From Candidatus Pelagibacter sp. (GTDB lineage Bacteria; Pseudomonadota; Alphaproteobacteria; Pelagibacterales; Pelagibacteraceae): a stretch of DNA of 10,417 bases. Below, piece after piece: positions 1-10,083 of this stretch. The position numbers and the translations under genes were made by a program. The notes beneath the pieces are model-generated. The model did not search any database. It saw only the letters and a list, made by a program, of their open reading frames with translations, and was not told where the DNA came from. Positions within the stretch are counted from its first letter, which is position 1. Each line of letters begins with the position of its first letter. The DNA is taken from the NCBI GenBank assembly GCA_028225715.1, contig JAOIXS010000026.1, forward strand, positions 1-10,417. The letters are read 5' to 3'.

Positions 1-696
1 TGTTAAAATTCCAAAAGATGACGAAAAGGAAATTGAAGTATTTCCTATAAATATATTTAATTGAGAAAAAGAAAAAATAATAAGAGGTAATGTTAACAAA
101 AAACCAAATAAAAAATAAAATTTTCCCTTACTATAAAAGAAAATGAATGGTGCTAAAAAAAGTGGATATATCTTAAGTGCAGCAGCTAAACCAATTAAAA
201 ATCCTGATACACCTCTCTGACTATATATACTAAGGTATATTAAAAAAAAAATTAACAAATCATTATTACCTCTATCAAAAATTAAAAATATGGGTGGTGA
301 AAAAATAATTAAACTATTTAGTAAAAAATTTTTTTTTACTCTTACCAAGTAAAAAACTGCAAATGAAAGGTAAATAAATATTTGCATGTAACCGAATAAA
401 TTATGTGGCTCACCCAACTTACTGATGAAATCAAAAATATACACCCAAATAAGTGGGTAATTCATAGGCCTATTCATTGTTTCTACTGAGCTAATTTTAT
501 CTTTGGTAGACATATTTTGTAAATTTAACTCTTCAAGTGATGGGATGATTGTTATTAAGTCTGCAAATATAGGATTAACTTTATATATAAGTCTATCTAT
601 ACCAAAATCATAAATTTGAAAAAAATCTAAGGAAAATATTGTAATGACGGTTGCCATAGATAAAAATCTAAATATATGTTCTGTTTTTTTTTTCAT
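1..696 (-). CDS. GT87/DUF2029-type membrane glycosyltransferase, C-terminus cut by window edge
   Basis: The reading frame opens with ATG at 694-696 and stays open for 232 codons to base 1, so the C-terminal part lies outside the window. The protein is strongly hydrophobic, with predicted membrane segments near residues 10-28, 75-90, 102-117, 125-137, 148-158, 167-188 and 193-215. Motifs resemble the polyprenyl-phosphate-mannose-dependent GT87/DUF2029 family: an N-Y-P motif followed by W (MNYPLIW), then D-R-G-N-N-D, then a G-x3-GLAAALKIYPLFLAPF stretch. Members of this family transfer sugars from lipid-linked donors on the outer face of the inner membrane, in envelope glycan synthesis. It starts 15 bases after the permease stop, so it is probably read through from the transporter operon, although a functional link is not obvious. 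A run of ten A follows the start codon directly. Family assignment is by motif recognition only; donor and acceptor cannot be told. Confidence 0.72.
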   Translation of the reverse strand, partial: MKKKTEHIFRFLSMATVITIFSLDFFQIYDFGIDRLIYKVNPIFADLITIIPSLEELNLQNMSTKDKISSVETMNRPMNYPLIWVYIFDFISKLGEPHNLFGYMQIFIYLSFAVFYLVRVKKNFLLNSLIIFSPPIFLIFDRGNNDLLIFFLIYLSIYSQRGVSGFLIGLAAALKIYPLFLAPFIFFYSKGKFYFLFGFLLTLPLIIFSFSQLNIFIGNTSISFSSSFGILT

Positions 697-711
697 CAGT
701 AATAAATATCT

Positions 712-1386
712 TTAATTAAAACTATATTTTTTTTCTAAATATTTTATCAGGTTATGAATAATAAAGGTCATAAACAGATAAATTCCACCTGCTAAAAGAA
801 ACACTTCTAAGGGTTTATAAGTCGTTGATACAATGTGTTTTGCAACACCTGTAATATCCATTAAAGTTACAGTACTTGCAAGGGATGTACCCTTCATCAT
901 TAATATAATTTCATTACCATAAGCTGGTAAAGATTGTCTGATCGCTACTGGAATTTGAATTTTATATAAAATAATTTTACTTGATATCCCTAAACTTTTA
1001 CCAGCTTCAATTATTCCAGGCTTTATAGTTTGAAAAGCAGATCTTAAAATTTCTGAAGTATAAGCTCCCGTATTTAAAGCAAATGCAATAATTGCACACC
1101 AATAAGGCTCTTTTAATATTGCCCAAAGAAAGGTTGATCTTAACCATTCAATTTGTCCAAGACCATAATAAATTATAAATATTTGAACCAATAATGGAGT
1201 TCCTCTAAATAAATAAGAATACCCATAAGCAAATTTATTAATAAATGGGTTTTTATTTAATCTTAAAACTGCAAATAAAAATCCAATAAATAAGCCAATG
1301 ATTAAAGATGCCGATAATAATTTTAAAGTTATAACTGCAGCACTTAAAAGTTTTGGCAAACTTGTTATCATTAAATCAAAATCCAT
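712..1386 (-). CDS. Polar amino acid ABC transporter permease (HisM/OccM family)
   Basis: This 224-residue inner-membrane protein is one of two permease subunits of a polar amino acid (PAAT/HAAT family) importer. Hydrophobic segments lie near residues 12-42, 55-77, 93-110, 160-180 and 193-212. The family motif RGTPLLVQ is at 61-68, and the cytoplasmic coupling (EAA) loop is at about 127-146, reading EAGKSLGIS and ending in a proline-containing helix (IPVAIRQ). Its length is normal for the family (220-240). The ATG at 1384-1386 shares one base with the TAA of the upstream permease (TAATG), which implies translational coupling. The pair would form the membrane heterodimer. No ATPase (HisP/OccP type) is seen next to it; the next gene downstream is a glycosyltransferase, so the ATP-binding subunit must come from elsewhere. 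The substrate is inferred from the neighbouring binding protein. Confidence 0.93.
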   Translation of the reverse strand: MDFDLMITSLPKLLSAAVITLKLLSASLIIGLFIGFLFAVLRLNKNPFINKFAYGYSYLFRGTPLLVQIFIIYYGLGQIEWLRSTFLWAILKEPYWCAIIAFALNTGAYTSEILRSAFQTIKPGIIEAGKSLGISSKIILYKIQIPVAIRQSLPAYGNEIILMMKGTSLASTVTLMDITGVAKHIVSTTYKPLEVFLLAGGIYLFMTFIIHNLIKYLEKKYSFN

Positions 1387-2078
1387 TAAAAGCCTCTACT
1401 ATACTTAACTTCAAGTCTGTTAATCAATTTCATGCTTAAAAAGGTAAGCATCAAATATAAAACTGCAGCAAAACAATAAAAGAATAAAGGATCTCTAGTA
1501 GAGCCTGCTGCAATATAAGATTGTCTCATAATTTCAACTAAACCAGTAACTGATATTAATGATGTGTCTTTTAAAGTGATTTGCCAAACATTACTTAAGT
1601 TTGGAATAGCAAGTCTTAACATTTGAGGCAAAATTATTTTATGAAATTGTACAAATTTACTAACCCCTAAAACTTTGGCAGCTTCAAATTGACCTTTATC
1701 TATTGATTGTATCGCTCCTCTAAATACTTCCGTTGAATAAGCTCCTGATATAATACCGATTGCAACCGAACCTGTAATAAAAGCATTAATTTCTATATAT
1801 TCAAAGTATCCAAAAATTGAAGCCACATACATAATCGCTCCACTTCCCCCAAAAAAGAAAAGGTAGATTACTAATAGTTCTGGCACACCTCTGATTACTG
1901 TTGTGTACGTATTTCCAATAAAATTTAGAAATTTATTATTTGATAATTTAAGTGGCGTAAAGATTAATGAAAATAAAAAACCAATTAACATTGCAGTAAC
2001 TGCTACTGCAATTGTCATTAGAGTTGCATAAAACAACTCGTCTCCCCAGCCTGTTTTTCCGAATGATAAAAGATCCAT
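1386..2078 (-). CDS. Polar amino acid ABC transporter permease (HisQ/OccQ family)
   Basis: This 230-residue inner-membrane permease is the partner of the subunit encoded directly after it. Membrane segments lie near residues 18-40, 58-78, 96-115, 165-182 and 198-215. RGVPELL is at 63-69 (the second family motif), and the EAA coupling loop is at 132-151 (EAAKVLGVSK, then ILPQ). The EAA loop contacts the ATPase, which is not encoded in this window. The start at 2076-2078 gives the expected N-terminus and lies eight bases downstream of an intercistronic stem-loop. No purine-rich ribosome site is visible between the stem and ATG. Together with the binding protein at 2124-2975 the order is binding protein, Q, M, as in many alphaproteobacterial octopine/arginine/ornithine-type systems. 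Assignment to the family is firm; the substrate is inferred. Confidence 0.93.
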   Translation of the reverse strand: MDLLSFGKTGWGDELFYATLMTIAVAVTAMLIGFLFSLIFTPLKLSNNKFLNFIGNTYTTVIRGVPELLVIYLFFFGGSGAIMYVASIFGYFEYIEINAFITGSVAIGIISGAYSTEVFRGAIQSIDKGQFEAAKVLGVSKFVQFHKIILPQMLRLAIPNLSNVWQITLKDTSLISVTGLVEIMRQSYIAAGSTRDPLFFYCFAAVLYLMLTFLSMKLINRLEVKYSRGF

Positions 2079-2082
2079 ATCG

Positions 2083-2112
2083 AAAGGGCGACTAATTAAA
2101 TAGTCGCCTTTT
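2083..2112 (-). promoter_or_regulatory. Intercistronic stem-loop between binding-protein and permease genes
   Basis: GGCGACTA at 2087-2094 pairs perfectly with TAGTCGCC at 2101-2108 around a six-base A/T loop. Flanking A and T runs extend the stem around one unpaired C on the minus strand. The hairpin fills most of the 45-base gap between the binding-protein stop and the permease start. In binding-protein transport operons such hairpins commonly stabilise the upstream message or stop part of transcription, so the periplasmic protein is made in excess over the permeases. On the minus strand only a short T run follows, so partial termination or RNA protection is more likely than full termination. 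That role is inferred from position. Confidence 0.7.
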
Positions 2113-2123
2113 CAAAATATTAT

Positions 2124-2975
2124 TTACATAGAAGCGTCAAAGCCAAAATGCTTGATCGCTAATTTGCTGATGATTCCTTTTTTTCTAGCAGTATTGATTG
2201 CTTTGTTGAAATCTCTAAGAAGCTTTGCGTCTCTTTTACCAATCGTATCAGTTCCGCCTTGTCTTATTCCAACTCCAACACCATTACCAAAAGCACCACC
2301 TGAAAAAGTAGGTCCAACTAGTACTACTGGTTTTCCTGATTTATCCGCATAATCAGTGAATGCAACTGCTGCAGCTAATGCAACATCACATCTACCAGAA
2401 GTTAAGTCTAAGTTTACTTCATCTTGAGTTTTGTAAGTTCTAACATTCACTTTACCTACATCACCCGACTCTAAAAAGTTTTGGTGAATAGTTCCAGTTT
2501 GTGTACAAACAGTTTTTCCAGCAAGTGCAGCAGTTAAAGTCTTAAGAGTTTTCTTAACAGCACTTCCACCTAAAGTTAAATTAATACCTTCTGGTGTATC
2601 CATGCTCTCTAAACTTGAACCTTTCATTGCTGCAAGGGCTGCAACTTCGTCAGCATAACCTTGTGAAAAAGTAATTGTTTTTTGTCTTTCAGCAGTAATT
2701 GACATTCCTGCCATGATCGCATCAAACTTTCTCATTAACAAAGCTGGAATCATTCCATCCCAATCTTGTTCAACGATAGTACATTCATATTTCATGATTG
2801 CACAAAGTTCTTTTGCTAACTCTACCTCAAAACCAATAAGAGCACCTGATGCATCCTTAGAATTCCATGGTGGGTAAGCGCCTTCTGTTCCAATCTTTAT
2901 TTTATCGGCATAAACATTTCCAATAATTAATAAAGAAGCAAGAACTGTTAGAATAGTTTTTTTAAATATATTCAT
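2124..2975 (-). CDS. Periplasmic amino acid binding protein (octopine/lysine-arginine-ornithine type, SBP_bac_3)
   Basis: This 283-residue solute-binding protein delivers an amino acid to the permease pair encoded downstream. Residues 1-23 form a Sec signal peptide (KK, a hydrophobic core, then VYA with cleavage before D24). The family signature GFEVELAKELC is at 48-58. Likely ligand contacts by comparison with LAO/HisJ proteins are the EGAYPPW loop at 31-37, Trp72, Arg97 in the MSITAER segment (carboxylate clamp) and Asp197 in SGRCDVA (alpha-amino clamp). About 30 residues at 118-150 are extra relative to HisJ, as in the octopine/nopaline (OccT/NocT) branch, which the GPTFSGGAFGNGVGVG stretch (221-236) also resembles. 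A basic or opine-like amino acid is therefore the best guess for the ligand. A clear AAAGGAG site precedes the ATG, the strongest in the window, fitting high expression. Neutral or other amino acids cannot be excluded. Confidence 0.92.
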   Translation of the reverse strand: MNIFKKTILTVLASLLIIGNVYADKIKIGTEGAYPPWNSKDASGALIGFEVELAKELCAIMKYECTIVEQDWDGMIPALLMRKFDAIMAGMSITAERQKTITFSQGYADEVAALAAMKGSSLESMDTPEGINLTLGGSAVKKTLKTLTAALAGKTVCTQTGTIHQNFLESGDVGKVNVRTYKTQDEVNLDLTSGRCDVALAAAVAFTDYADKSGKPVVLVGPTFSGGAFGNGVGVGIRQGGTDTIGKRDAKLLRDFNKAINTARKKGIISKLAIKHFGFDASM

Positions 2976-2981
2976 TATTTT

Positions 2982-2988
2982 CTCCTTT
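2982..2988 (-). promoter_or_regulatory. Shine-Dalgarno site of the binding-protein gene
   Basis: AAAGGAG on the minus strand lies six bases before the ATG at 2973-2975. It fixes the start of the binding protein. It stands out because most other genes here lack a recognisable site. Confidence 0.85.
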
Positions 2989-3014
2989 AATTTGTGACAA
3001 TTATTTCACAAATT
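2989..3014 (-). promoter_or_regulatory. Inverted repeat AATTTGTGA-N8-TCACAAATT before the binding-protein gene (possible operator or RNA hairpin)
   Basis: A perfect nine-base inverted repeat with an eight-base A/T spacer touches the Shine-Dalgarno site of the binding-protein gene and lies about 20 bases past the speDE stop. The half-sites contain TGTGA/TCACA, as in CRP/FNR-type operators, but with eight rather than six bases between them. No U run follows on the minus strand, so it is not a standard terminator. It could be a repressor or activator site, or an RNA hairpin affecting ribosome access. Symmetry is seen directly; the role is inferred. Confidence 0.5.
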
Positions 3015-3034
3015 TAATAATTAAAAAAGAAAAA

Positions 3035-4075
3035 TTAATGATTTATTGAAGAAGAAAAATTCCAAGAACAATCAAAACTAGGTATGTAAACTCTAGATAT
3101 TTTAGTATTTCCAAAATGATGGTTAAATACATTTAACCAGCTATCAACTTGTTTGGGTTTTTTATCTTGGCTACCAACTTGAGCTGTAATCACTCCTTTT
3201 GGTTTTAAAATTCTAATCATAGAATCCATATTTTTTGCAGCAAGATCTATGCAAAACTGATCATCATTAAGATCAACAAATATGTGATCATAGGTATCAT
3301 CTTGTACTGACTTTATACTTTCAAAAGCATCTCCCCATACACATTTTACTGAATTTTTTTCTGTAGATTTTTTTCCAATATCACCGAGGTGTTTATTGCA
3401 AACATCTACAACCTCAGGATCAAGTTCATACCAATCAACAAAACTAAAATTTTTAGAAATACATTCTCTAGCAACACCACCATCACCTCCACCAATAATA
3501 GCTGCTTTTTCATTGTCTTTATTTAAATTAAGACCTGCACCAACAAATGTTGAGCTGTATAAATGTTCATCAGTTGATGCAACTTGAATTTCGCCATCAA
3601 TAAATAAAGATTTACCAAATTGTTCTAATTCTAAAATTTCAATATGTTGACCAACTTTTGATTTAAAATCTTCAATCACATCATTTACTACATATGATTT
3701 TTGTAAACCAGATGAACTATAAATATCATGATAAAGGGATTTTGTGTCTCTATTGAACTCTTTTTTAACAATTCTTTTATGTTTAAATTCTTTTTTAACA
3801 ATATCGAGTGCAATAGAAGGACTTACCTTCCCACATGTAAAAAAATCAAAACTAGTAATTCCTTTTTCTGGAAAGGTATGAAAACTGATGTGACTTTCGG
3901 CTAATAAGGCAAGTATAGTAAAACCTTGAGGCTCAAATTTATACTTTGAAATTTCAAGAATTGTAACTTCTGCAGCTTTTGCAATTTTACGAATTACATT
4001 CTCGTAGACTGAAGGATCATACTCCTGAGTTGTACCAATGATGTCTAAAGTTATATGTTCACCGACTTTAGTCAT
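3035..4075 (-). CDS. speDE: Fused S-adenosylmethionine decarboxylase-spermidine synthase
   Basis: This 346-residue two-domain cytosolic protein makes spermidine from putrescine and S-adenosylmethionine. Residues 1-115 are a bacterial class 1B AdoMet decarboxylase. Self-cleavage would occur between Glu60 and Ser61 in ESHISFHTFPE, Ser61 becoming the pyruvoyl group, with His66 and Cys81 (DFFTCG) matching Ser63/His68/Cys83 of the Thermotoga enzyme at a constant offset. Residues 128-346 are an aminopropyltransferase: IDGEIQVASTDEHLY (159-173), the nucleotide loop GGGDGG (195-200), acidic YELDP (216-220), GDAF (248-251), and catalytic Asp268 and Asp271 in VDLNDDQ, where most spermidine synthases have D-S-S-D-P. 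The retained D-x-x-D fits a diamine acceptor. The by-product MTA is the substrate of the genes just upstream in the same operon; the gap to the aldolase is five bases. Such fusions are known in some bacteria. Cleavage would leave the transferase attached to the alpha chain. Confidence 0.93.
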   Translation of the reverse strand: MTKVGEHITLDIIGTTQEYDPSVYENVIRKIAKAAEVTILEISKYKFEPQGFTILALLAESHISFHTFPEKGITSFDFFTCGKVSPSIALDIVKKEFKHKRIVKKEFNRDTKSLYHDIYSSSGLQKSYVVNDVIEDFKSKVGQHIEILELEQFGKSLFIDGEIQVASTDEHLYSSTFVGAGLNLNKDNEKAAIIGGGDGGVARECISKNFSFVDWYELDPEVVDVCNKHLGDIGKKSTEKNSVKCVWGDAFESIKSVQDDTYDHIFVDLNDDQFCIDLAAKNMDSMIRILKPKGVITAQVGSQDKKPKQVDSWLNVFNHHFGNTKISRVYIPSFDCSWNFSSSINH

Positions 4076-4080
4076 AAAAA

Positions 4081-4713
4081 TTATCCCCTCTTATAATTTT
4101 TTGCTTTACTTAAAACTTTGCTCATTTCTCTTGATGATAAAATTTTAGGCTTACCAATTTTTAGCGCTTTTATATACTGGTTCGAAAGATTTTCAACCTC
4201 TTCAGCTAATTCAAATGCCTTTGATAAATTCTCAGAAAATGCAATTTGTCCGTGATTGCCTATTAAGCAAGCATTTCTCTGTTTTAATGCTTTAAGAATA
4301 TTTTGAGACAATTCTCTTGTTCCATAGGTTGCATATTTTGCACATTTAATATCCTTACCTCCTGCCATAGCGACCATGTAATGAAATGCTGGTATTCCTT
4401 TTCCATGAGTAGAGATTGCTGTTGCGTAGTTAGAGTGTGCATGCACTATTGCTTTAGCTTCTTTTTTATTCAAGTAAATATCCTGGTGAAATCTCCATTC
4501 AGAAGATGGTATTCCTTTTTTTTCATCAAATTCACCTTTTAGGGAAACAAAAACTATATCTTTATTTTTCAATGAAGAATATTTAGCTCCTGAGGGTGTT
4601 ATTAAAAAACCATCTTGAAATCTAGCAGATATATTGCCAGATCTAAGAGCAGATAACTTTCTACTATTCAGCATCTTAGCGTACTTAATAACTTCAGACC
4701 TTAAACTTTTCAT
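4081..4713 (-). CDS. FucA-like class II aldolase, probable 5-methylthioribulose-1-phosphate aldolase (DHAP shunt)
   Basis: This 210-residue zinc aldolase is very close in pattern to E. coli L-fuculose-1-phosphate aldolase (FucA). Zinc ligands are His91 and His93 (IVHAHSNYA) and His154 (GNHG), and the catalytic Glu72 lies in PSSEWRFH. GNIS (27-30) and TPSG (39-42) form the phosphate site. All are FucA positions shifted by one. Its ATG shares one base with the mtnA stop, so it belongs to the MTA operon. The likely reaction is cleavage of 5-methylthioribulose-1-P to dihydroxyacetone phosphate and 2-methylthioacetaldehyde, as described for Ald2 of Rhodospirillum rubrum and some E. coli. The alternative, MtnB dehydratase of classic methionine salvage, is the same superfamily, but the FucA-like motifs and the absence of mtnC/D/E/K genes nearby favour the aldolase. 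True fuculose-1-P aldolase activity is less likely given the neighbours, though enzymes of this group can be promiscuous. Confidence 0.82.
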   Translation of the reverse strand: MKSLRSEVIKYAKMLNSRKLSALRSGNISARFQDGFLITPSGAKYSSLKNKDIVFVSLKGEFDEKKGIPSSEWRFHQDIYLNKKEAKAIVHAHSNYATAISTHGKGIPAFHYMVAMAGGKDIKCAKYATYGTRELSQNILKALKQRNACLIGNHGQIAFSENLSKAFELAEEVENLSNQYIKALKIGKPKILSSREMSKVLSKAKNYKRG

Positions 4714-5783
4714 TATTCAAACATCTTCTTTAATGCATCACTTGATGCTTCACAAATTCCTTTTTCAGTTATTAATCCTGTTACATATTTTGCTGGTGTA
4801 ACATCAAAAGCAAGGTTCATTGCCTTGCTTTTTTTAGGATAAATCAAAATTTTTTTAATTTCATTATTTTCATCCACACCTTCAATATGAGATAGCTCTT
4901 CTGAATTCCTCTCCTCTATGGGAATATCTTTTCCCTCTTTAATTTTCCAATCAATAGTCGAGCTTGGTAACGCCACATAAAACGGGACATTATTGTCATG
5001 AGCAGCCAAAGCTTTAAGGTAAGTGCCTATCTTATTACAAACATCTCCATTAGATAAAGTTCTGTCTGTTCCAACGATACACATATCAACATCACCTCTT
5101 TGCATTAAAATTCCACCTGTATTATCTGCAATAATTGTATTTGGAATATTTTCTTCATTTAATTCATATGAGGTTAAATTTGCACCTTGGTTTCTAGGTC
5201 TTGTTTCATCAACCCAAACATGCACCGGAATACCCTTTTGATGAGCATGGTAGATCGGAGAAGTCGCTGTCCCCCAATTGATAGTTGCTAACCATCCTGC
5301 ATTACAATGAGTTAAAATATTAACTTTTTTTTTGGTTTTGTTATAAATTTCCTCAATTATCTTTAATCCATTAAGTCCAATATTTTCACAAAATTTTTCA
5401 TCTTCATCACATATTTCTTTAGCTTCATTTAAAGCAATATCTAAAATTTGACCACTATTAATGCCTGATAATTTTTTCATCATACGATCTACAGCCCACT
5501 TTAAATTTATAGCAGTAGGTCTTGATTCAATTAACTCTTCAGAACTTTTTTTAATAAAATCAGGATCATTATTTTCCTGAACTGCCAGTGCAATTCCATA
5601 GGCCGCTGTACCACCAATCAATGGTGCTCCTCTTACTTCCATTACTTTAATGGCATTAATTGCATCTTTGACTGTTTTTAAATCTTTAATAATAAACTGA
5701 TGTGGAAGTTTTGTTTGATCAATTATTTTGACAACATTTTCTTCGTACCAAATAGTTCTGTATTTTTTATTTTGAATTTTCAT
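4713..5783 (-). CDS. mtnA: S-methyl-5-thioribose-1-phosphate isomerase
   Basis: This 356-residue cytosolic enzyme converts methylthioribose-1-P to methylthioribulose-1-P, the second step after MTA phosphorolysis. It belongs to the eIF2B-alpha-like isomerase family and has the full active site: RGAPLIG at 51-57, Cys160 in THCNAGW, ETRPRNQGA at 193-201, Asp240 in GTDR, then NKIGTYLKALAA at 250-261. Cys160 and Asp240 carry the same numbers as in the Bacillus subtilis enzyme, so the N-terminus chosen at 5781-5783 is right and the gene is full length. The ATG overlaps the mtnP stop by four bases (ATGA), and its own TAA overlaps the aldolase start by one base, so all three are probably translated together. 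Archaeal ribose-1,5-bisphosphate isomerase is the main look-alike, ruled out by length and by the MtnP partner. Confidence 0.96.
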   Translation of the reverse strand: MKIQNKKYRTIWYEENVVKIIDQTKLPHQFIIKDLKTVKDAINAIKVMEVRGAPLIGGTAAYGIALAVQENNDPDFIKKSSEELIESRPTAINLKWAVDRMMKKLSGINSGQILDIALNEAKEICDEDEKFCENIGLNGLKIIEEIYNKTKKKVNILTHCNAGWLATINWGTATSPIYHAHQKGIPVHVWVDETRPRNQGANLTSYELNEENIPNTIIADNTGGILMQRGDVDMCIVGTDRTLSNGDVCNKIGTYLKALAAHDNNVPFYVALPSSTIDWKIKEGKDIPIEERNSEELSHIEGVDENNEIKKILIYPKKSKAMNLAFDVTPAKYVTGLITEKGICEASSDALKKMFE

Positions 5784-6652
5784 TTAGATAGAGCTCTACC
5801 AGCTACTGTCTTGAGTTTATCTATTGTTTTTTGAGTTCTTTTTTCAGGTGCAGTAATAATTGCTACATCTAAACAATTATTAGTAGGATCTTTTGGATCG
5901 ATATGACTTTCAAAATTATTAATAATACTTTTTATCATTTTTTTTGCTTTTTCAGCATTTCCTAAAAGAACTTTAATCACTTGCTGAACATCTACATTTT
6001 CATGATCGGGATGCCAACAATCAAAATCAGTGACCATTGATACAGATGCATACCTGATCTCAGCTTCTCTTGCGAGTTTTGCTTCAGGCATATTGGTCAT
6101 TCCAATAACATCCGCATTCCAAGATCTATATAAATTAGACTCAGCTAATGTTGAAAATTGAGGGCCCTCCATTACTACATAAGTTCCGTTTCTTTGATAA
6201 TCTATATTTGATTTCTTAATCGCATCTTCACAGGTATTCATTAACCCATTTGATGTTGGATGTGCCATTGATACATGAGCCACAATTTCATCATCAAAAA
6301 AAGTTTTTGATCTTGCAAAAGTTCTATCAATAAATTGGTCCACAATAACAAATTTTCCTGGAGTTAAATCCTCTTTAAGAGAGCCTACAGCTGAAACTGA
6401 AACTATATCTGTAACACCTAGTTGTTTAAGTGCATCAATATTTGCTCTAAAATTTATATTAGATGGAGAAACAAAATGACCCCTTCCATGTCTTGGCAAA
6501 AAATAAACTTCCTTATTGTTATAATTTGTTTTTAAAATTTGATCTGATGGTTTTCCCCAAGGAGTATCTATATCAAGTAATGCACGATCTTTAAATTCCT
6601 CAACATCATAAAGGCCACTTCCACCAATAATTGCTAATTTATTTGTTGTCAT
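5780..6652 (-). CDS. mtnP: S-methyl-5'-thioadenosine phosphorylase
   Basis: This 290-residue member of the PNP/MTAP family cleaves MTA with phosphate into adenine and 5-methylthioribose-1-P. It shows the phosphate loop GGSG (10-13), PRHGRGH (53-59), SAVGSL (87-92), EGPQFST (162-168), GMTNMPEA (184-191) and TDFDCW (208-213). The aspartate pair at 209/211 matches the adenine-reading residues of human MTAP rather than the Asn of guanine-type phosphorylases, so MTA is the likely substrate. A TTG two codons upstream would give 292 residues, but the ATG at 6650-6652 places M just before TTNKLAIIGGSG and is preferred. The last about 40 residues, after FESH, extend beyond the core, as in many bacterial MtnP. 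It is the first gene of the chain mtnP-mtnA-aldolase-speDE, and apt, which uses its adenine product, is divergent 41 bases away. Confidence 0.95.
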   Translation of the reverse strand: MTTNKLAIIGGSGLYDVEEFKDRALLDIDTPWGKPSDQILKTNYNNKEVYFLPRHGRGHFVSPSNINFRANIDALKQLGVTDIVSVSAVGSLKEDLTPGKFVIVDQFIDRTFARSKTFFDDEIVAHVSMAHPTSNGLMNTCEDAIKKSNIDYQRNGTYVVMEGPQFSTLAESNLYRSWNADVIGMTNMPEAKLAREAEIRYASVSMVTDFDCWHPDHENVDVQQVIKVLLGNAEKAKKMIKSIINNFESHIDPKDPTNNCLDVAIITAPEKRTQKTIDKLKTVAGRALSK

Positions 6653-6693
6653 AATCAAAAATTTATTTATTTATACTTTTATAATTAAGTATT
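6653..6693. promoter_or_regulatory. Divergent promoter region between mtnP and apt
   Basis: All upstream control of both genes must fit in or overlap these 41 bases, which are almost purely A/T. On the plus strand a perfect TATAAT at 6680-6685 would start RNA around 6692, one or two bases before the apt ATG, giving a leaderless or nearly leaderless message; no good -35 is seen. On the minus strand TATAAA (6675-6670), with a poor -35 (TTCATA, 6698-6693) lying over the apt start codon, would serve mtnP. Neither gene has a Shine-Dalgarno site. In such A/T-rich DNA single -10 matches are weak evidence, so only the shared region is firm. Confidence 0.55.
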
Positions 6694-7221
6694 ATGAATT
6701 TAAAAGATTATATTAGATCAATTCCAGATTATCCAAAAAAAGGGATTCTATTTAGAGATATTACAACTCTAATTAAGGATTCAGATGCATTTGAAGAGTG
6801 TATTAACCAAATAATTGAAAGATCTAAAAATTATAAAATAGATAAAATTGCAGCAATTGAATCGAGAGGATTTGTATTTGCTTCTGCAGTTTCTTACCTA
6901 CTTAAAAAACCATTTATAATGTTTAGAAAAAAAAACAAACTTCCTGCTGAAACTCATTCTGTTGATTTTGAATTAGAGTATGGAACAGCAACTATTGAAG
7001 TGCATAAAGATTCAATTGATAAAGACGATTCAGTTTTGATTATAGATGATTTAATAGCAACAGGTGGTACTGCTGAAGCTGCAGCTAAACTTGTAGAAAT
7101 GTCGAATGCCAAAATTGCAGCATTTGTTTTTGCAATTAATCTTTTTGACCTAGGTGGATCTGATAATTTAGTTAAAAAAGGTTATAAGGTTGAGAACTTA
7201 ATGGATTTTCCAGGGCATTAA
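6694..7221 (+). CDS. apt: Adenine phosphoribosyltransferase
   Basis: This 175-residue cytosolic type I phosphoribosyltransferase converts adenine and PRPP to AMP and pyrophosphate. The sequence shows IPDYPKKGILFRDIT at the N-terminus (10-24, the purine-binding part in APRT), ESRGF (56-60), the flexible-loop segment RKKNKLPAET (78-87) and the PRPP loop VLIIDDLIATGGTA (114-127). Length and order match bacterial Apt exactly. It lies back to back with mtnP, whose reaction releases adenine, so the pair recovers the purine part of MTA made by spermidine synthesis. The ATG at 6694 is preceded by TATAAT at a distance that leaves almost no 5' leader. Its stop ends one base before the 3' end of the convergent tRNA gene, so its transcript probably runs antisense into the tRNA; no separate terminator is seen. 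Confidence 0.96.
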   Translation: MNLKDYIRSIPDYPKKGILFRDITTLIKDSDAFEECINQIIERSKNYKIDKIAAIESRGFVFASAVSYLLKKPFIMFRKKNKLPAETHSVDFELEYGTATIEVHKDSIDKDDSVLIIDDLIATGGTAEAAAKLVEMSNAKIAAFVFAINLFDLGGSDNLVKKGYKVENLMDFPGH

Positions 7222-7222
7222 A

Positions 7223-7299
7223 TGGTAGCGGGAAGTGGAATCGAACCACTGACCTCAGGCTTATGAGTCCTGCGCTCTAACCGACTGAGCTACCCCGCC
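7223..7299 (-). tRNA. tRNA with CAU anticodon, probably elongator tRNA-Met
   Basis: The 77-base cloverleaf includes an encoded CCA (7223-7225). The anticodon CAU is at 7265-7263 in loop CTCATAA. The D arm is GCTC/GAGC and the T arm AGTGG-TTCGAAT-CCACT. The acceptor stem has Watson-Crick pairs at 2-71 to 6-67 but G-U at 1-72 and 7-66, and the anticodon stem has an A31-G39 mismatch. It is not the initiator: position 1-72 is not C/A, the three G-C pairs at 29-31/39-41 are incomplete, and 11-24 is C-G. G2-C71, C3-G70 and A73 suit methionyl-tRNA synthetase. The lysidine-modified tRNA-Ile(CAU) is the alternative; it usually has C4-G69 and C5-G68, while G4-C69 and G5-C68 are seen here. Confidence 0.9.
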
Positions 7300-7369: not shown

Positions 7370-7597
7370 TTACTTTAAGAGTGTGATAAAAGTTCCTAAT
7401 AAAGAAAGTCCTAAAACAGTAGAACTATAAAAAATGATTTTTCGTTTTGTTTCATTTTTTTGATCTATTTTTACTCTGTTAAGTAATTTGTTGATATCAA
7501 CAACTTGTTTTACACTTACGTGCTGTGCTTCAGATAATCTTTTTGTATTTGTATTTTGATCAATTGACCTATCATTATGAAAATACACTTTTCGCAT
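7370..7597 (-). CDS. Small tail-anchored hypothetical protein
   Basis: This is a 75-residue protein that I do not recognise. Residues 1-52 are polar and charged, with a segment at 20-44 (LSEAQHVSVKQVVDINKLLNRVKID) that could form an amphipathic helix or short coiled coil. A basic stretch (KNETKRK, 47-53) is followed by one hydrophobic segment (about 54-74) running to the C-terminus. It is therefore likely a single-pass inner-membrane protein with its N-terminus in the cytoplasm. It lies between the dehydrogenase gene (41 bases upstream) and the tRNA-Met promoter, all in the same direction. Start choice (ATG 7595-7597) is uncertain, as no ribosome site is clear. The regular charge pattern and the good fit into the gap argue for a real gene, but no function can be assigned. 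Confidence 0.62.
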   Translation of the reverse strand: MRKVYFHNDRSIDQNTNTKRLSEAQHVSVKQVVDINKLLNRVKIDQKNETKRKIIFYSSTVLGLSLLGTFITLLK

Positions 7598-7638: not shown

Positions 7639-10083
7639 TTATAAAAATCTAGCTTGTTTATCTTTTAGAGGAGTGATTTCTACTAGTGCTGGGAATTTCT
7701 GTTTAGCAACTTCAATATATAGATCCATTTTTGAAAGTTCTTCATTTGAATATGCTAAATTTATATATCCAAAAGACAAGTTTTTTTTATAATTAAAGGA
7801 ATAATTTCCAGATGTCGTTCTTCCTATAATTTTGTCCCCAAGATAAATTGGCTCTTCATGTAATAATAGAGGTGTGCCTGGCTTATTATCTTTAAGTGAC
7901 AACATAATAAATCTTCTATTTTGTTTTTGATTTTTGATTTTTAATAAGCTTTCTTTGCCAATAAAGTCGATTTCTTTTTTATAACTGATTGCAAAATTTA
8001 ATCCTGCCTCGTACTGATTTTCTTCAGGTGAAATGTCGTGACCCCAATGTAAAAAACCACTTTCCATTCTCATAGTGTCCATTGCATGCGATCCACAGTG
8101 AGATAAATCATGATTTTTTCCCTCTTCAACAATTAATTGATAAATTTCTTTAGCATCTTTATTTTCCATATAAAGCTCAAACCCTAATTCGCCCACATAA
8201 GATAATCTTTGAGCCCAAGCTTTTTTTGAACCGATGGTTACAAATTTTCCATAACCAAATTTAAATATTTTGTTGCTAAAATCATCATTTGAAATTTTTG
8301 AAATTAAATTTCTACTTTTTGGTCCAAAAATTCCTAAACAAACAAGATCATCCGTAATATCTTTAAATTCTAAATTGGGTGATAAATGTTTTAAAATATG
8401 TGCTTTATCATGAGTTCTTGTTGCAGCTGAACTTATTATTCTAAAATGATTTTTATCAATACAAATAACAGTTAAGTCTGTTTCAATTCCTCCTGCCTCA
8501 TTCAACATTTGTGTGTAAGTTGATCTGCCTATTTCATTCTTAATGTTAGCTGTACATATTCTTTGTAATTCACTGTGTGCTTCTTCTCCTTTTATTTCAT
8601 ATTTTGAGAAGGGAGAAAGTTCATACAATCCAACATTGGTAATTGTATTTTTTGTTTCAAATTCAACTGAAGGATACCAGTTTTGGTAATCAAAACTGTA
8701 TTTGTATTCTGCTTTTTCATTATTTTTTGCATACCACATAGGTCTTTCGTATTCACCCGATACACCAAAGCATGCACCTTCTTTTTTTAATTCTTCATGA
8801 TACGGTAATAATTTTTGATTTCTTGAAGTGCTATGCTGTTTGTAAGGCCAGTGCATTCCATATAAATCACCAAGAGTTTCCGTTACTCTTTCCATAATAA
8901 ATTTTTTAGATGAATGAAATTTTTGAAATCTTTTAATATCAAGTGAAAATAAATCTTCATTCATATATCCATTAATCATCCATTCAGCAGTAACTCTACC
9001 TGCACCCCCTGAACTTGCGATCCCAATACTGTTAAACCCACAACAAGTAAAAAGGTTATTCACTTCTGGCGTTTCTCCTAAAAGGTATTGGGTATCCGGT
9101 GTAAAAGATTCGGGTCCTGAAAAAAATTTTCTAATTCCAGCAGTTTCTAACATAGGCAATCTTTGAAAAGATTTTTCTAAATAAGGTTCAAAGTGATCAA
9201 AATCATCTGGAAATTCACCAAATGAAAAATCTTCTGGAACAATTCCCTTATCTTTAAAGGCAGGTTTTGCATTGGGTTCAAATATTCCAACTAACATTTT
9301 CCCTGCATCTTCTTTCAAATAAAGACAGGAATTATAGTCTCTTAAAACCGGTAAGTTTTTAGGTAACTTATCTAGTGGTTCTGTAATGATATAAAAGTGC
9401 TCATTTGGATATAATGGAATACTTACACCAATATCTTCTCCAATTTGTCTCGACCACATCCCAGTTGCAATTACAACGTATTCACAATCAATTTTACCAA
9501 ATTTCGTTTGAACACCAACAATTTTTTTGTCTTTAACTAATATTTTTTCAACAGGTGTTTTCTCAAATATCTGAGCACCTTCCATCTTTGCAGCTTTAGC
9601 TAATACATTAGTAACCCCTATAGGATCTGCCTGACCATCTTCTGGCATATAAACACCACCTAAAATGTCATCATCATTTATAACAGGATAAAGTTCTTTT
9701 ATTCTTTGTTTGTTAACGCTCTCAACATTGACATCAAATAATTGTGCAGCTGTTGCTTGTCTTAATAGTTCTTGCAATCTTTCAGGTGTGCTTGCAACTG
9801 TGATTGCTCCGTTTTGTTTTAATCCAGTTGATAATCCTGTTTTTTTTTCTAATTCTTTATAAAGATTTAAAGAGTATTTTCTAAGACGTGTAATGGTGGA
9901 TGAGGCTCCTAATTGACCCACAAGTCCTGCTGCATGCCAAGTAGTTCCTGATGTAAGCTGATCCCTTTCCAATAATATCGTATCTTTCCAACCATATTTT
10001 GCAAGATGATAGGCAACCGAACAACCAGCAACACCCCCTCCTATAACTACTACTTTAGCTGATTTTGGTAATACGGCTGACAT
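7639..10083 (-). CDS. Dimethylglycine/sarcosine dehydrogenase-like flavoprotein with GcvT (folate-binding) domain
   Basis: This 814-residue cytosolic flavoenzyme probably oxidatively removes a methyl group from N-methylated glycine (dimethylglycine or sarcosine), passing the one-carbon unit to tetrahydrofolate. Residues 10-370 are a DAO-type FAD domain with VVVIGGGVAGCSVAYHL (dinucleotide fold, 11-27). SGTTWHAAGL (45-54) contains His50, the position that binds FAD covalently in DMGDH/SARDH. About 370-430 is the central FAO_M-type linker. About 475-700 is an aminomethyltransferase (GcvT) domain with GGIETDL (531-537, Asp536 at the folate-site catalytic position) and YVGELGFELY (629-638). About 720-805 is the GcvT C-terminal barrel. 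There is no signal peptide. Length fits the 800-860 residue family. In SAR11 such enzymes act in glycine betaine breakdown, but several paralogues with different N-methyl substrates exist, so the exact substrate is open. The gene follows the cytochrome gene by 46 bases. No clear Shine-Dalgarno is seen. Confidence 0.88.
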   Translation of the reverse strand: MSAVLPKSAKVVVIGGGVAGCSVAYHLAKYGWKDTILLERDQLTSGTTWHAAGLVGQLGASSTITRLRKYSLNLYKELEKKTGLSTGLKQNGAITVASTPERLQELLRQATAAQLFDVNVESVNKQRIKELYPVINDDDILGGVYMPEDGQADPIGVTNVLAKAAKMEGAQIFEKTPVEKILVKDKKIVGVQTKFGKIDCEYVVIATGMWSRQIGEDIGVSIPLYPNEHFYIITEPLDKLPKNLPVLRDYNSCLYLKEDAGKMLVGIFEPNAKPAFKDKGIVPEDFSFGEFPDDFDHFEPYLEKSFQRLPMLETAGIRKFFSGPESFTPDTQYLLGETPEVNNLFTCCGFNSIGIASSGGAGRVTAEWMINGYMNEDLFSLDIKRFQKFHSSKKFIMERVTETLGDLYGMHWPYKQHSTSRNQKLLPYHEELKKEGACFGVSGEYERPMWYAKNNEKAEYKYSFDYQNWYPSVEFETKNTITNVGLYELSPFSKYEIKGEEAHSELQRICTANIKNEIGRSTYTQMLNEAGGIETDLTVICIDKNHFRIISSAATRTHDKAHILKHLSPNLEFKDITDDLVCLGIFGPKSRNLISKISNDDFSNKIFKFGYGKFVTIGSKKAWAQRLSYVGELGFELYMENKDAKEIYQLIVEEGKNHDLSHCGSHAMDTMRMESGFLHWGHDISPEENQYEAGLNFAISYKKEIDFIGKESLLKIKNQKQNRRFIMLSLKDNKPGTPLLLHEEPIYLGDKIIGRTTSGNYSFNYKKNLSFGYINLAYSNEELSKMDLYIEVAKQKFPALVEITPLKDKQARFL

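What the first reader, a model, noticed from the sequence alone, without database searches (positions are those of the whole stretch)
3035..6652. One operon couples spermidine synthesis to a complete MTA-to-DHAP shunt
mtnP, mtnA, a FucA-like aldolase and fused speDE are arranged with 4-base overlap, 1-base overlap and 5-base gap. SpeDE makes MTA; the three upstream enzymes would turn it into adenine, DHAP and 2-methylthioacetaldehyde. The DHAP shunt (MtnP-MtnA-Ald2) is known from Rhodospirillum rubrum and some E. coli, but there it is not, to my knowledge, fused in one transcription unit with the MTA-producing enzyme. In an organism of SAR11 type, which depends on reduced organic sulfur, the fate of the methylthio carbon is important: methylthioacetaldehyde could be reduced to methylthioethanol or release methanethiol.
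Basis: partly seen in the sequence, partly recalled or inferred. Interest (0 to 1): 0.78.

Follow-up and report, generated by a model that had tools for sequence, protein, structure and literature searches.

The report
SAR11 polyamine operon with MTA-disposal cassette
In SAR11 ocean bacteria the gene that makes polyamines, and with them the toxic by-product MTA, sits in one gene row with three enzymes predicted to turn MTA into adenine, a sugar phosphate and a small sulfur aldehyde, and relatives carry one of two other MTA-disposal gene sets in its place.

Summary
The window is SAR11 (Ca. Pelagibacter). In 105 relatives' loci, ald precedes speDE on the same strand in 99 of 99 measurable, within 20 bases in 93. 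MtnB and MtnD over cut-off: 0 of 198 SAR11-order genomes each.

Beyond the finding, the apt-speDE interval is an MTA-fate slot with three alternative contents. Of 198 genomes 160 carry speDE: 126 with the FucA-type aldolase, 23 with an aldolase-dehydrogenase fusion, 10 with a small MTA-nucleosidase-like gene, 1 with none (contig end); none has two. Contents swap repeatedly, even between near relatives. The fusion is also mtn-linked in other genomes of the class (18 of 30 loci) and is a candidate for the unidentified dehydrogenase after Ald2.

Verdict: reader supported; a known pathway (DHAP shunt) in a polyamine-coupled, modular form. The chemistry of the SAR11 aldolase and the fate of the methylthio group remain unshown.

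The parts
5780..6652 (-). mtnP, 5'-methylthioadenosine phosphorylase (MTA + Pi to adenine + 5-methylthioribose-1-P)
   Evidence: NF006492 445.7 bits (cut-off 437), TIGR01694 310.3 (274.85)
4713..5783 (-). mtnA, 5-methylthioribose-1-P isomerase; overlaps mtnP by 4 bases
   Evidence: TIGR00512 426.8 bits (cut-off 279); overlap
4081..4713 (-). FucA-type class II aldolase, predicted 5-methylthioribulose-1-P aldolase (Ald2 role); overlaps mtnA by 1 base
   Evidence: PF00596 163.6 bits; aligned to E. coli FucA: E72, H91, H93, H154, Y112, Y207 (210-aa numbering) kept at the FucA zinc and catalytic positions (roles of these residues recalled)
3035..4075 (-). speDE, fused S-adenosylmethionine decarboxylase and aminopropyltransferase; the source of MTA
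   Evidence: PF02675 95.7 and PF01564 85.1 bits; ESH processing motif at E60/S61 (motif recalled); the same kind of fusion is active in HTCC1062 and HTCC7211 (PMC11107197, passages; those sequences were not aligned here)
6694..7221 (+). apt, adenine phosphoribosyltransferase, divergent; returns the adenine to AMP
   Evidence: TIGR01090 198.6 bits (cut-off 185.85)
6653..6693 (.). 41-base spacer between divergent apt and mtnP; upper edge of the exchanged cassette at about 6684
712..2975 (-). amino-acid type ABC transporter genes (binding protein 2124-2975, permeases 1386-2078 and 712-1386) that follow speDE in many SAR11 loci; lysine/arginine/ornithine-like, substrate unproven
   Evidence: TIGR01096 221.2 bits (below cut-off 256.35), PRK11123 181 and PRK11122 192 below cut-off; synteny

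Best explanation
The locus is the SAR11 polyamine unit with its own by-product disposal. SpeDE decarboxylates S-adenosylmethionine and transfers aminopropyl groups, releasing one MTA per transfer. MtnP phosphorolyses MTA to adenine, which Apt returns to AMP, and 5-methylthioribose-1-P; MtnA isomerises that to 5-methylthioribulose-1-P; the class II aldolase cleaves it to DHAP and 2-(methylthio)acetaldehyde. MTA is thereby kept low, a purine and a phosphorylated C3 unit are recovered without a kinase step, and a two-carbon methylthio aldehyde is left for general dehydrogenases or export. The gene block between apt and speDE is a replaceable MTA-fate cassette: other SAR11 lineages hold there either mtnP-mtnA with an aldolase-dehydrogenase fusion or a nucleosidase-like gene alone. 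Shown here: gene identities, order, conservation, mutual exclusion, cassette exchange. Shown by others: activity of Pelagibacter SpeDE; the same enzyme trio in Rhodopseudomonas and Rhodospirillum. Inferred: substrate of this aldolase, one transcript, fate of the aldehyde.
For: Gene families and junctions. Conserved order in 105 loci. MtnB 0 of 198, MtnD 0 of 198, RuBisCO-like 1 of 198 over cut-off, so the searched alternatives onward from MTRu-1-P are absent. The aldolase is displaced by a class II aldolase-SDR fusion over the NF006192 cut-off (905.6 vs 639) with both active-site sets kept in at least 98% of 54 aligned rows. Window against L241/L249, in 200-base steps: 91-100% DNA identity over the transporter genes up to 2800 and 92-95% in apt, with the module between about 4102 and 6684 replaced. 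MtnP-MtnA-Ald2 gives DHAP and 2-(methylthio)acetaldehyde aerobically in R. palustris (PMC5893883, passages); E. coli uses mtnK-mtnA-ald2 (PMC10986504, passages).
Against: No enzyme assay or transcript. The aldolase lies below every NCBIfam cut-off listed (25 of 30 shown). It is nearer E. coli FucA (44-46%) than E. coli Ald2 (38-40%), and in the tree E. coli Ald2 groups with FucA, not with SAR11. R. rubrum Ald2 was not compared. Linkage to mtn genes does not mark one clade: L222 (mtnP-linked) falls among unlinked aldolases. In 19 of 104 loci mtnA and ald are more than 1200 bases apart, with antiparallel genes between in the nine that I listed, so one transcript cannot hold everywhere; the fusion is divergent from speDE in 22 of 22 loci. 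Five module-bearing genomes lack speDE (G091, G268, G090, G095, G106), and two more have mtnA alone (G188, G212). Fisher p-values are not corrected for relatedness.
Confidence: 0.85

Rival explanations
1. The block serves mainly 5'-deoxyadenosine from radical SAM enzymes: MtnP-MtnA-aldolase give DHAP and acetaldehyde (the DrdA role), and the link to speDE is incidental or secondary.
For: The same trio with a kinase or phosphorylase is reported for 5-deoxyribose salvage in six phyla (PMC6079011, passages); the shunt takes both substrates in E. coli (PMC10986504, passages); PDB entry 6btd (named fuculose phosphate aldolase there; that it is B. thuringiensis DrdA is recalled) matches the aldolase with 134 bits.
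Against: Module presence follows speDE: 159 of 160 with, 5 of 38 without; ald lies within 20 bases of speDE in 93 of 99 loci. Two substrates are compatible, so this rival is partly complementary.
Confidence: 0.1
2. The aldolase-like protein acts as the MTRu-1-P dehydratase MtnB of the classical methionine salvage pathway.
For: MtnB is of the same superfamily; weak match TIGR03328 63.2 bits; in E. coli S88 an Ald2-like protein was annotated as MtnB (PMC6302742, passages).
Against: 63.2 is far below the 137.05 cut-off; MtnD over cut-off in 0 of 198 genomes; aldolase residues kept; replaced by an aldolase-dehydrogenase fusion in 23 genomes.
Confidence: 0.03
3. The aldolase is an L-fuculose-1-P or other sugar-phosphate aldolase that happens to lie in the operon.
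For: Nearest named family is FucA (211.6 bits; 44-46% to E. coli FucA).
Against: Below FucA cut-offs (211.6 vs 264; 194.6 vs 400.25); no fuc-like gene among the window's ORFs; next to mtnA or mtnP in SAR11 and in 5 of the 12 strongest matches outside it (L221, L222, L225, L226, L227).
Confidence: 0.05
4. The unit mainly consumes imported MTA (for example exuded by Prochlorococcus) for adenine and carbon rather than its own MTA.
For: Prochlorococcus exudes MTA under phosphate limitation (PMC11698098, passages); apt is divergent; E. coli uses the shunt on external nucleosides (PMC10986504, passages).
Against: No nucleoside transporter is among the window's named genes; the module follows speDE genome by genome.
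Confidence: 0.1

Closest known systems
DHAP shunt, MtnP variant (MtnP-MtnA-Ald2) of Rhodospirillum rubrum and Rhodopseudomonas palustris
   Same: Same three enzyme families in the same order of reactions; works aerobically in R. palustris (PMC5893883, passages)
   Different: In the passages read there is no tie to speDE and the dehydrogenase after Ald2 is called putative; here the trio is embedded between apt and speDE and is exchangeable
E. coli DHAP shunt mtnK-mtnA-ald2
   Same: Isomerase and aldolase roles; L239 shows the cluster
   Different: Uses a nucleosidase and a kinase, lies by a sugar transporter and a regulator; its aldolase groups with FucA, apart from SAR11
5-deoxyribose salvage, kinase or phosphorylase with DrdI and DrdA (PMC6079011, passages)
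   Same: Homologous trio, class II aldolase yielding DHAP
   Different: Assigned to the 5'-deoxyadenosine by-product; no polyamine gene in the passages read
RhaEW / RhaD_aldol-ADH bifunctional aldolase-dehydrogenase (PMC3870299, passages)
   Same: Domain order and length of the 677-aa SAR11 alternative; RhaEW makes DHAP and oxidises the aldehyde with NAD+
   Different: RhaEW orthologues were reported as always within rha loci; the SAR11 fusion lies by speDE and mtn genes and 18 of 30 others of the class by mtnA, mtnP or apt; TIGR02632 442 bits is below its 567.75 cut-off
Pelagibacter AdoMetDC-aminopropyltransferase fusion (PMC11107197, passages)
   Same: This is the same fused enzyme type
   Different: A search of that paper's main text for operon, gene cluster, neighborhood and methylthioadenosine found nothing

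Membership tests
DHAP shunt (MtnP variant) | MTA phosphorylase MtnP | tested here: met
   over two curated cut-offs
DHAP shunt (MtnP variant) | MTR-1-P isomerase MtnA | tested here: met
   TIGR00512 426.8 vs 279
DHAP shunt (MtnP variant) | class II aldolase with catalytic Glu, three zinc His, two Tyr | tested here: met
   alignment to FucA and E. coli Ald2; residue roles recalled
DHAP shunt (MtnP variant) | aldolase of the same clade as R. rubrum/R. palustris Ald2 | not tested
   those sequences were not fetched; E. coli Ald2 is not sister to it
DHAP shunt (MtnP variant) | cleavage of MTRu-1-P to DHAP and methylthioacetaldehyde | not testable with these tools
   needs assay
Classical methionine salvage | MtnB dehydratase and MtnD dioxygenase | tested here: not met
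   0 of 198 over cut-off each, (relatives; window genome not held)
MTA-isoprenoid shunt | RuBisCO-like protein | tested here: not met
   1 of 198 (G212, in which mtnA is found in pieces); its cupin partner was not searched
L-fuculose-phosphate aldolase FucA | NCBIfam FucA cut-off | tested here: not met
   211.6 vs 264, 197.3 vs 264, 194.6 vs 400.25
MtnB | TIGR03328 cut-off | tested here: not met
   63.2 vs 137.05
bifunctional aldolase/SDR (fusion found in relatives) | curated family NF006192 and both active sites | tested here: met
   905.6 and 796.2 vs 639 for the two proteins scanned; residues
RhaD_aldol-ADH TIGR02632 (RhaEW) | equivalog cut-off | tested here: not met
   442 and 458 vs 567.75
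MTA/SAH nucleosidase MtnN (174-178 aa gene in relatives) | curated cut-off | tested here: not met
   three proteins: 87.3-94.1 vs 129 (PRK05634), 38.6-57.8 vs 73.8 (TIGR01704)
MTA/SAH nucleosidase MtnN (174-178 aa gene in relatives) | conserved E174, D197 of E. coli Mtn | tested here: met
   invariant in E. coli Mtn and the 6 of 10 SAR11 genes aligned; roles recalled

The most novel reading that the evidence does not exclude
SAR11 polyamine loci are MTA-fate switches: one replaceable cassette between apt and speDE decides whether the ribose of MTA is wasted (nucleosidase), cleaved to DHAP and a free methylthio aldehyde (FucA-type aldolase), or cleaved and oxidised within one polypeptide to DHAP and methylthioacetate (aldolase-SDR fusion). 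The fusion, mtn-linked in many other Alphaproteobacteria, would be the missing aldehyde-handling enzyme of the DHAP shunt and a new source of methylated sulfur acids in the sea.
Probability: 0.5. Interest if true: 0.77.

Novelty: new variant of a known kind. Interest (0 to 1): 0.63.

Why it matters
SAR11 is among the most abundant cell types in the sea and cannot use sulfate (PMC5069961, passages), so how it treats the sulfur of every MTA it makes bears on reduced-sulfur budgets. A tie between polyamine synthesis and one of three MTA routes makes a testable trait that can be read from a genome. The mtn-linked aldolase-dehydrogenase fusion offers a candidate for the dehydrogenase step that PMC5893883 calls putative. 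The tie also bears on the proposal that SAR11 SpeE runs backwards to break down spermidine (PMC8437039, passages): a co-encoded MtnP would remove the MTA that the reverse reaction needs (inference).

Tried and rejected
Considered and set aside. Neofunctionalised SpeD (ornithine/arginine decarboxylase, PMC10407285, passages): the SpeD half keeps an ESH...HTFPE...FTCG pattern (recalled) and the Pelagibacter fusions made spermidine in an E. coli speD deletion strain (PMC11107197, passages). Riboswitch control: the Rfam scan of the window gave only the tRNA above gathering score. G001 as kin: it shares 25% of window words but has no close aldolase (best E 1.8e-12), so it was not used as the species. 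Inserted genes between mtnP and mtnA or mtnA and ald as pathway members: their families (weak alpha/beta hydrolase, GFA, PhyH, asparaginase II, DUF1015, TrpB-like, sulfatase) differ by lineage and I found no consistent role. No structure was predicted: the folds were not in doubt. The tree itself did not use the labels.

Limits. The genome sets are unnamed and partly incomplete; hits at contig ends were counted as they fell (G154, G240, G268 lie at ends; G188 ends about where its fusion would lie). Some window references on the minus strand ended 3 bases early (for example window:4081-4710, window:3035-4072), which left out the start Met; residue numbers are therefore one lower than in this report. 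North et al. 2020 (PMC7237333), by its title a survey of the shunt, is not held and was not seen. mtnC, mtnE, mtnK and methylthio-alkane reductase genes were not searched. Partial fusion rows (query coverage under 90%) were dropped before the residue count; rows under 85% coverage before the tree.
Full report
Observation. Curated models name MtnP, MtnA, Apt and the SpeD half over cut-off; the SpeE half matches Pfam Spermine_synth but lies under the NCBIfam SpeE cut-offs; the aldolase is a FucA-type class II aldolase below the NCBIfam cut-offs listed. The nearest database aldolase that bears an organism name is from Candidatus Pelagibacter (97% identity; unnamed ones reach 98%). apt is divergent from mtnP across 41 bases, so adenine recovery is in the same place.

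Aldolase. Aligned with E. coli FucA and E. coli Ald2, it keeps the glutamate, three histidines and two tyrosines that I recall as catalytic and zinc-binding in FucA. E. coli FucA Phe131 is Tyr130 here (210-aa numbering; the position is recalled). A tree of 38 aldolases puts 15 SAR11 sequences in one clade (97/92), beside four mtnA-linked aldolases from other genomes (L221, L225, L226, L227) and one unlinked row (87/85); E. coli Ald2 and six Xenorhabdus aldolases next to mtnA group with FucA instead. Of the 12 strongest matches, fetched, five lie beside mtnP or mtnA; the fifth, L222, groups with unlinked rows. So the role seems to have been taken up more than once from FucA-like stock.

Conservation. 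One scan of genome contigs returned 80 loci: 64 SAR11-type, 12 Xenorhabdus, 3 Yersinia, 1 other. With the window and 40 further SAR11-order loci this gives 105 ald-type loci. ald is followed by speDE on the same strand in 99 of 99 where both could be read, within 20 bases in 93; mtnA is upstream of ald on the same strand in 104 of 104, within 20 bases in 66; mtnP upstream of mtnA in 96 of 96, within 20 bases in 55. Genes inserted between differ by lineage; ald and speDE were never more than 400 bases apart.

Other salvage routes. In 198 SAR11-order genomes drawn evenly from a larger group: MtnD 0, MtnB 0, RuBisCO-like 1 over cut-off; MtnB in a first set of 20 genomes, 0 over cut-off (some are shared with the 198). 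MtnA: 149 with a match, 145 over cut-off.

The slot, second content. The aldolase has a strong match (E up to 1e-20) in 127 of 198 genomes (counted). 25 genomes have an MtnA match and no such aldolase; I fetched the mtnA region of all 25. In 17 of the 25 a 677-aa protein lies between mtnA and speDE on the opposite strand (in three of these with further genes between it and mtnA); in one it follows mtnA on the same strand; in six it is not in the stretch fetched; one is broken. It is a class II aldolase fused to a short-chain dehydrogenase (NF006192 905.6 bits, cut-off 639). It is full length in 23 of 198 genomes and partial in one; 23 of the 25 have it, the other two being G188, whose contig ends about where it would lie, and G212, where mtnA itself is in pieces. 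In 22 of 22 measurable loci the fusion is divergent from speDE with 85-100 bases between, also where many genes separate it from mtnA (L233-L236; in L237 it is on another contig). In G091, which has no speDE match, apt, mtnP, mtnA and the fusion run in one direction, followed by a PF04371 gene (the family that includes agmatine deiminase, recalled).

Third content. Eleven genomes have speDE but neither mtnA nor either aldolase; ten were fetched (all but G154). All ten have, between apt and speDE, a 174-178-aa gene of the MTA/SAH nucleosidase superfamily, below curated cut-offs in the three scanned but with E174 and D197 of E. coli Mtn kept in the six aligned. It is on the speDE strand in 10 of 10, 53-112 bases upstream, and occurs in 13 of 198 genomes.

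Counts. speDE is in 160 of 198 (E up to 1e-20). Of these 126 have the aldolase, 23 the fusion, 10 the nucleosidase-like gene, 1 (G154, speDE starting 149 bases from a contig end; not inspected) none; no genome has two. Of 38 without speDE, 33 have none of the three; the five exceptions are G268 (aldolase), G091 (fusion), G090, G095 and G106 (nucleosidase-like), and G188 and G212 have mtnA only. Fisher p for aldolase against fusion among MtnA genomes 5e-25, not corrected for relatedness.

Exchange. On a tree of the downstream binding protein and permease (117 loci; short search, simple model) the module label needs 22 changes against a least of 2; well-supported branches force at least 12 for the aldolase, 8 for the fusion and 5 for the nucleosidase-like state. 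The flank is itself open to recombination, so this counts local swaps, not species history. The window sits with L241 and L249, both nucleosidase-type, with 98% protein identity to L249. DNA identity to these two, in 200-base steps, is 91-100% from 800 to 2800, 86-88% at 2800-3000, 78-86% through 3000-3800 in speDE and 94% at 3800-4000; the match stops at 4102, resumes at 6684 just before apt, and is 92-95% in apt. The mtnP-mtnA-ald block has thus been exchanged as a unit between near relatives; which state is older is not known.

The fusion elsewhere. In 190 genomes of the class, 32 match the fusion at E up to 1e-100. Of the 30 loci returned, 18 show mtnA, mtnP or apt within about 1.5 kb; contig positions put mtnA within 2 kb in two more (G332, G354). 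MtnA is over cut-off in 29 of the 32 fusion genomes against 17 of 48 others tested (Fisher 6e-7, uncorrected; 48 of the 158 others were sent). On a quick tree linked and unlinked ones are intermixed and the SAR11 ones stand together without support. In 54 aligned rows (53 loci and a copy of the reference) both active sites are kept in at least 98% (E125, H139, H141, H200; S562, Y575, K579; roles recalled).

What is known. The MtnP-MtnA-Ald2 route and its products are established in R. rubrum and R. palustris, the dehydrogenase being called putative, with about 6.5% of bacteria in KEGG said to hold the three enzymes (PMC5893883, passages). E. coli and Bacillus variants are known (PMC10986504, PMC12632272, PMC6079011, passages). 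The Pelagibacter SpeDE fusion was assayed (PMC11107197, passages). RhaEW, the assayed relative of the fusion, makes DHAP and lactate with NAD+ and was reported always in rha loci (PMC3870299, passages). SAR11 with 'DHAP shunt' gave 0 papers; 'bifunctional aldolase', 'short-chain dehydrogenase' and 'methylthioribulose', two of three, gave 4, one of them the RhaEW paper, none on MTA by title and abstract start; '5-deoxyribulose', 'aldolase', 'short-chain dehydrogenase' listed 12 of 224, none on such a fusion by title and abstract start; searches with Pelagibacter or SAR11 and methylthioadenosine, methylthioribose, mtnA or MTA phosphorylase (the last two capped at 20 of 35 and 12 of 751) listed no paper whose title or abstract start describes this operon. 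The library holds open-licence papers only, so absence there is weak.

Mechanism and standing. The best reading is a polyamine unit that removes its own by-product by the DHAP shunt. Shown here: genes, order, conservation, absence of MtnB and MtnD in relatives, one module per speDE genome, cassette exchange. Inferred: aldolase substrate, transcript, aldehyde fate. If the fusion works like RhaEW, methylthioacetate would be the product in those lineages; in window-type cells a separate dehydrogenase must act. It is a new variant of a known pathway.

Noticed in passing
L192, L196, L200, L202, L204, L209 (mtnA region): In these six loci a 263-aa gene (PhyH family in the one scanned) lies between mtnP and mtnA, and a sulfatase plus a 114-aa unassigned protein follow mtnA; TRAP-like transporter genes (by eye) and further genes then separate mtnA from the fusion and speDE.
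   Followed up: partly
L049, L052, L083 4500-8000; L064, L066, L074, L078: Between mtnA and ald lie DUF1015 and TrpB-like genes antiparallel to the operon, in L049, L052 and L083 with an asparaginase II gene (families scanned in L049 only); ald stays with speDE.
   Followed up: partly
L051 6531-6929; L087 6148-6600: GFA-family gene (Pfam, L051) and a similar-looking one (L087, by eye) between mtnP and mtnA; an aldehyde/glutathione role is conceivable but untested.
   Followed up: no
L035, L036, L040, L049, L066, L068 and others, between mtnP and mtnA: A variable protein with a signal-like N-terminus and weak, sub-cut-off alpha/beta-hydrolase matches, in one or two copies.
   Followed up: no
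L225, L227: Two other genomes carry mtnP-apt-mtnA-ald in one row (with a 130-aa gene between apt and mtnA in L225), preceded by genes whose lengths suggest petABC (lengths only, not searched).
   Followed up: no
window 1-2975: The ABC transporter next to speDE has no ATPase gene beside it in the window, while many SAR11 loci have a 261-262-aa gene after the second permease that could be it (not scanned).
   Followed up: no
window 7223-7299: tRNA-Met (CAT) on the minus strand just past apt.
   Followed up: no
window 7370-7597: 75-aa ORF without a family over cut-off; 41-52% matches near the locus in L066, L158, L174, L241 and L250.
   Followed up: no
window 7639-10083: FAD oxidoreductase fused to a GcvT-type folate domain (dimethylglycine/sarcosine dehydrogenase-like), found in the same region in a number of relatives.
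   Followed up: no
G001: The nearest held genome by shared words (25%) is 2.6 Mb and lacks this aldolase; it may carry a stray SAR11 contig (guess).
   Followed up: no
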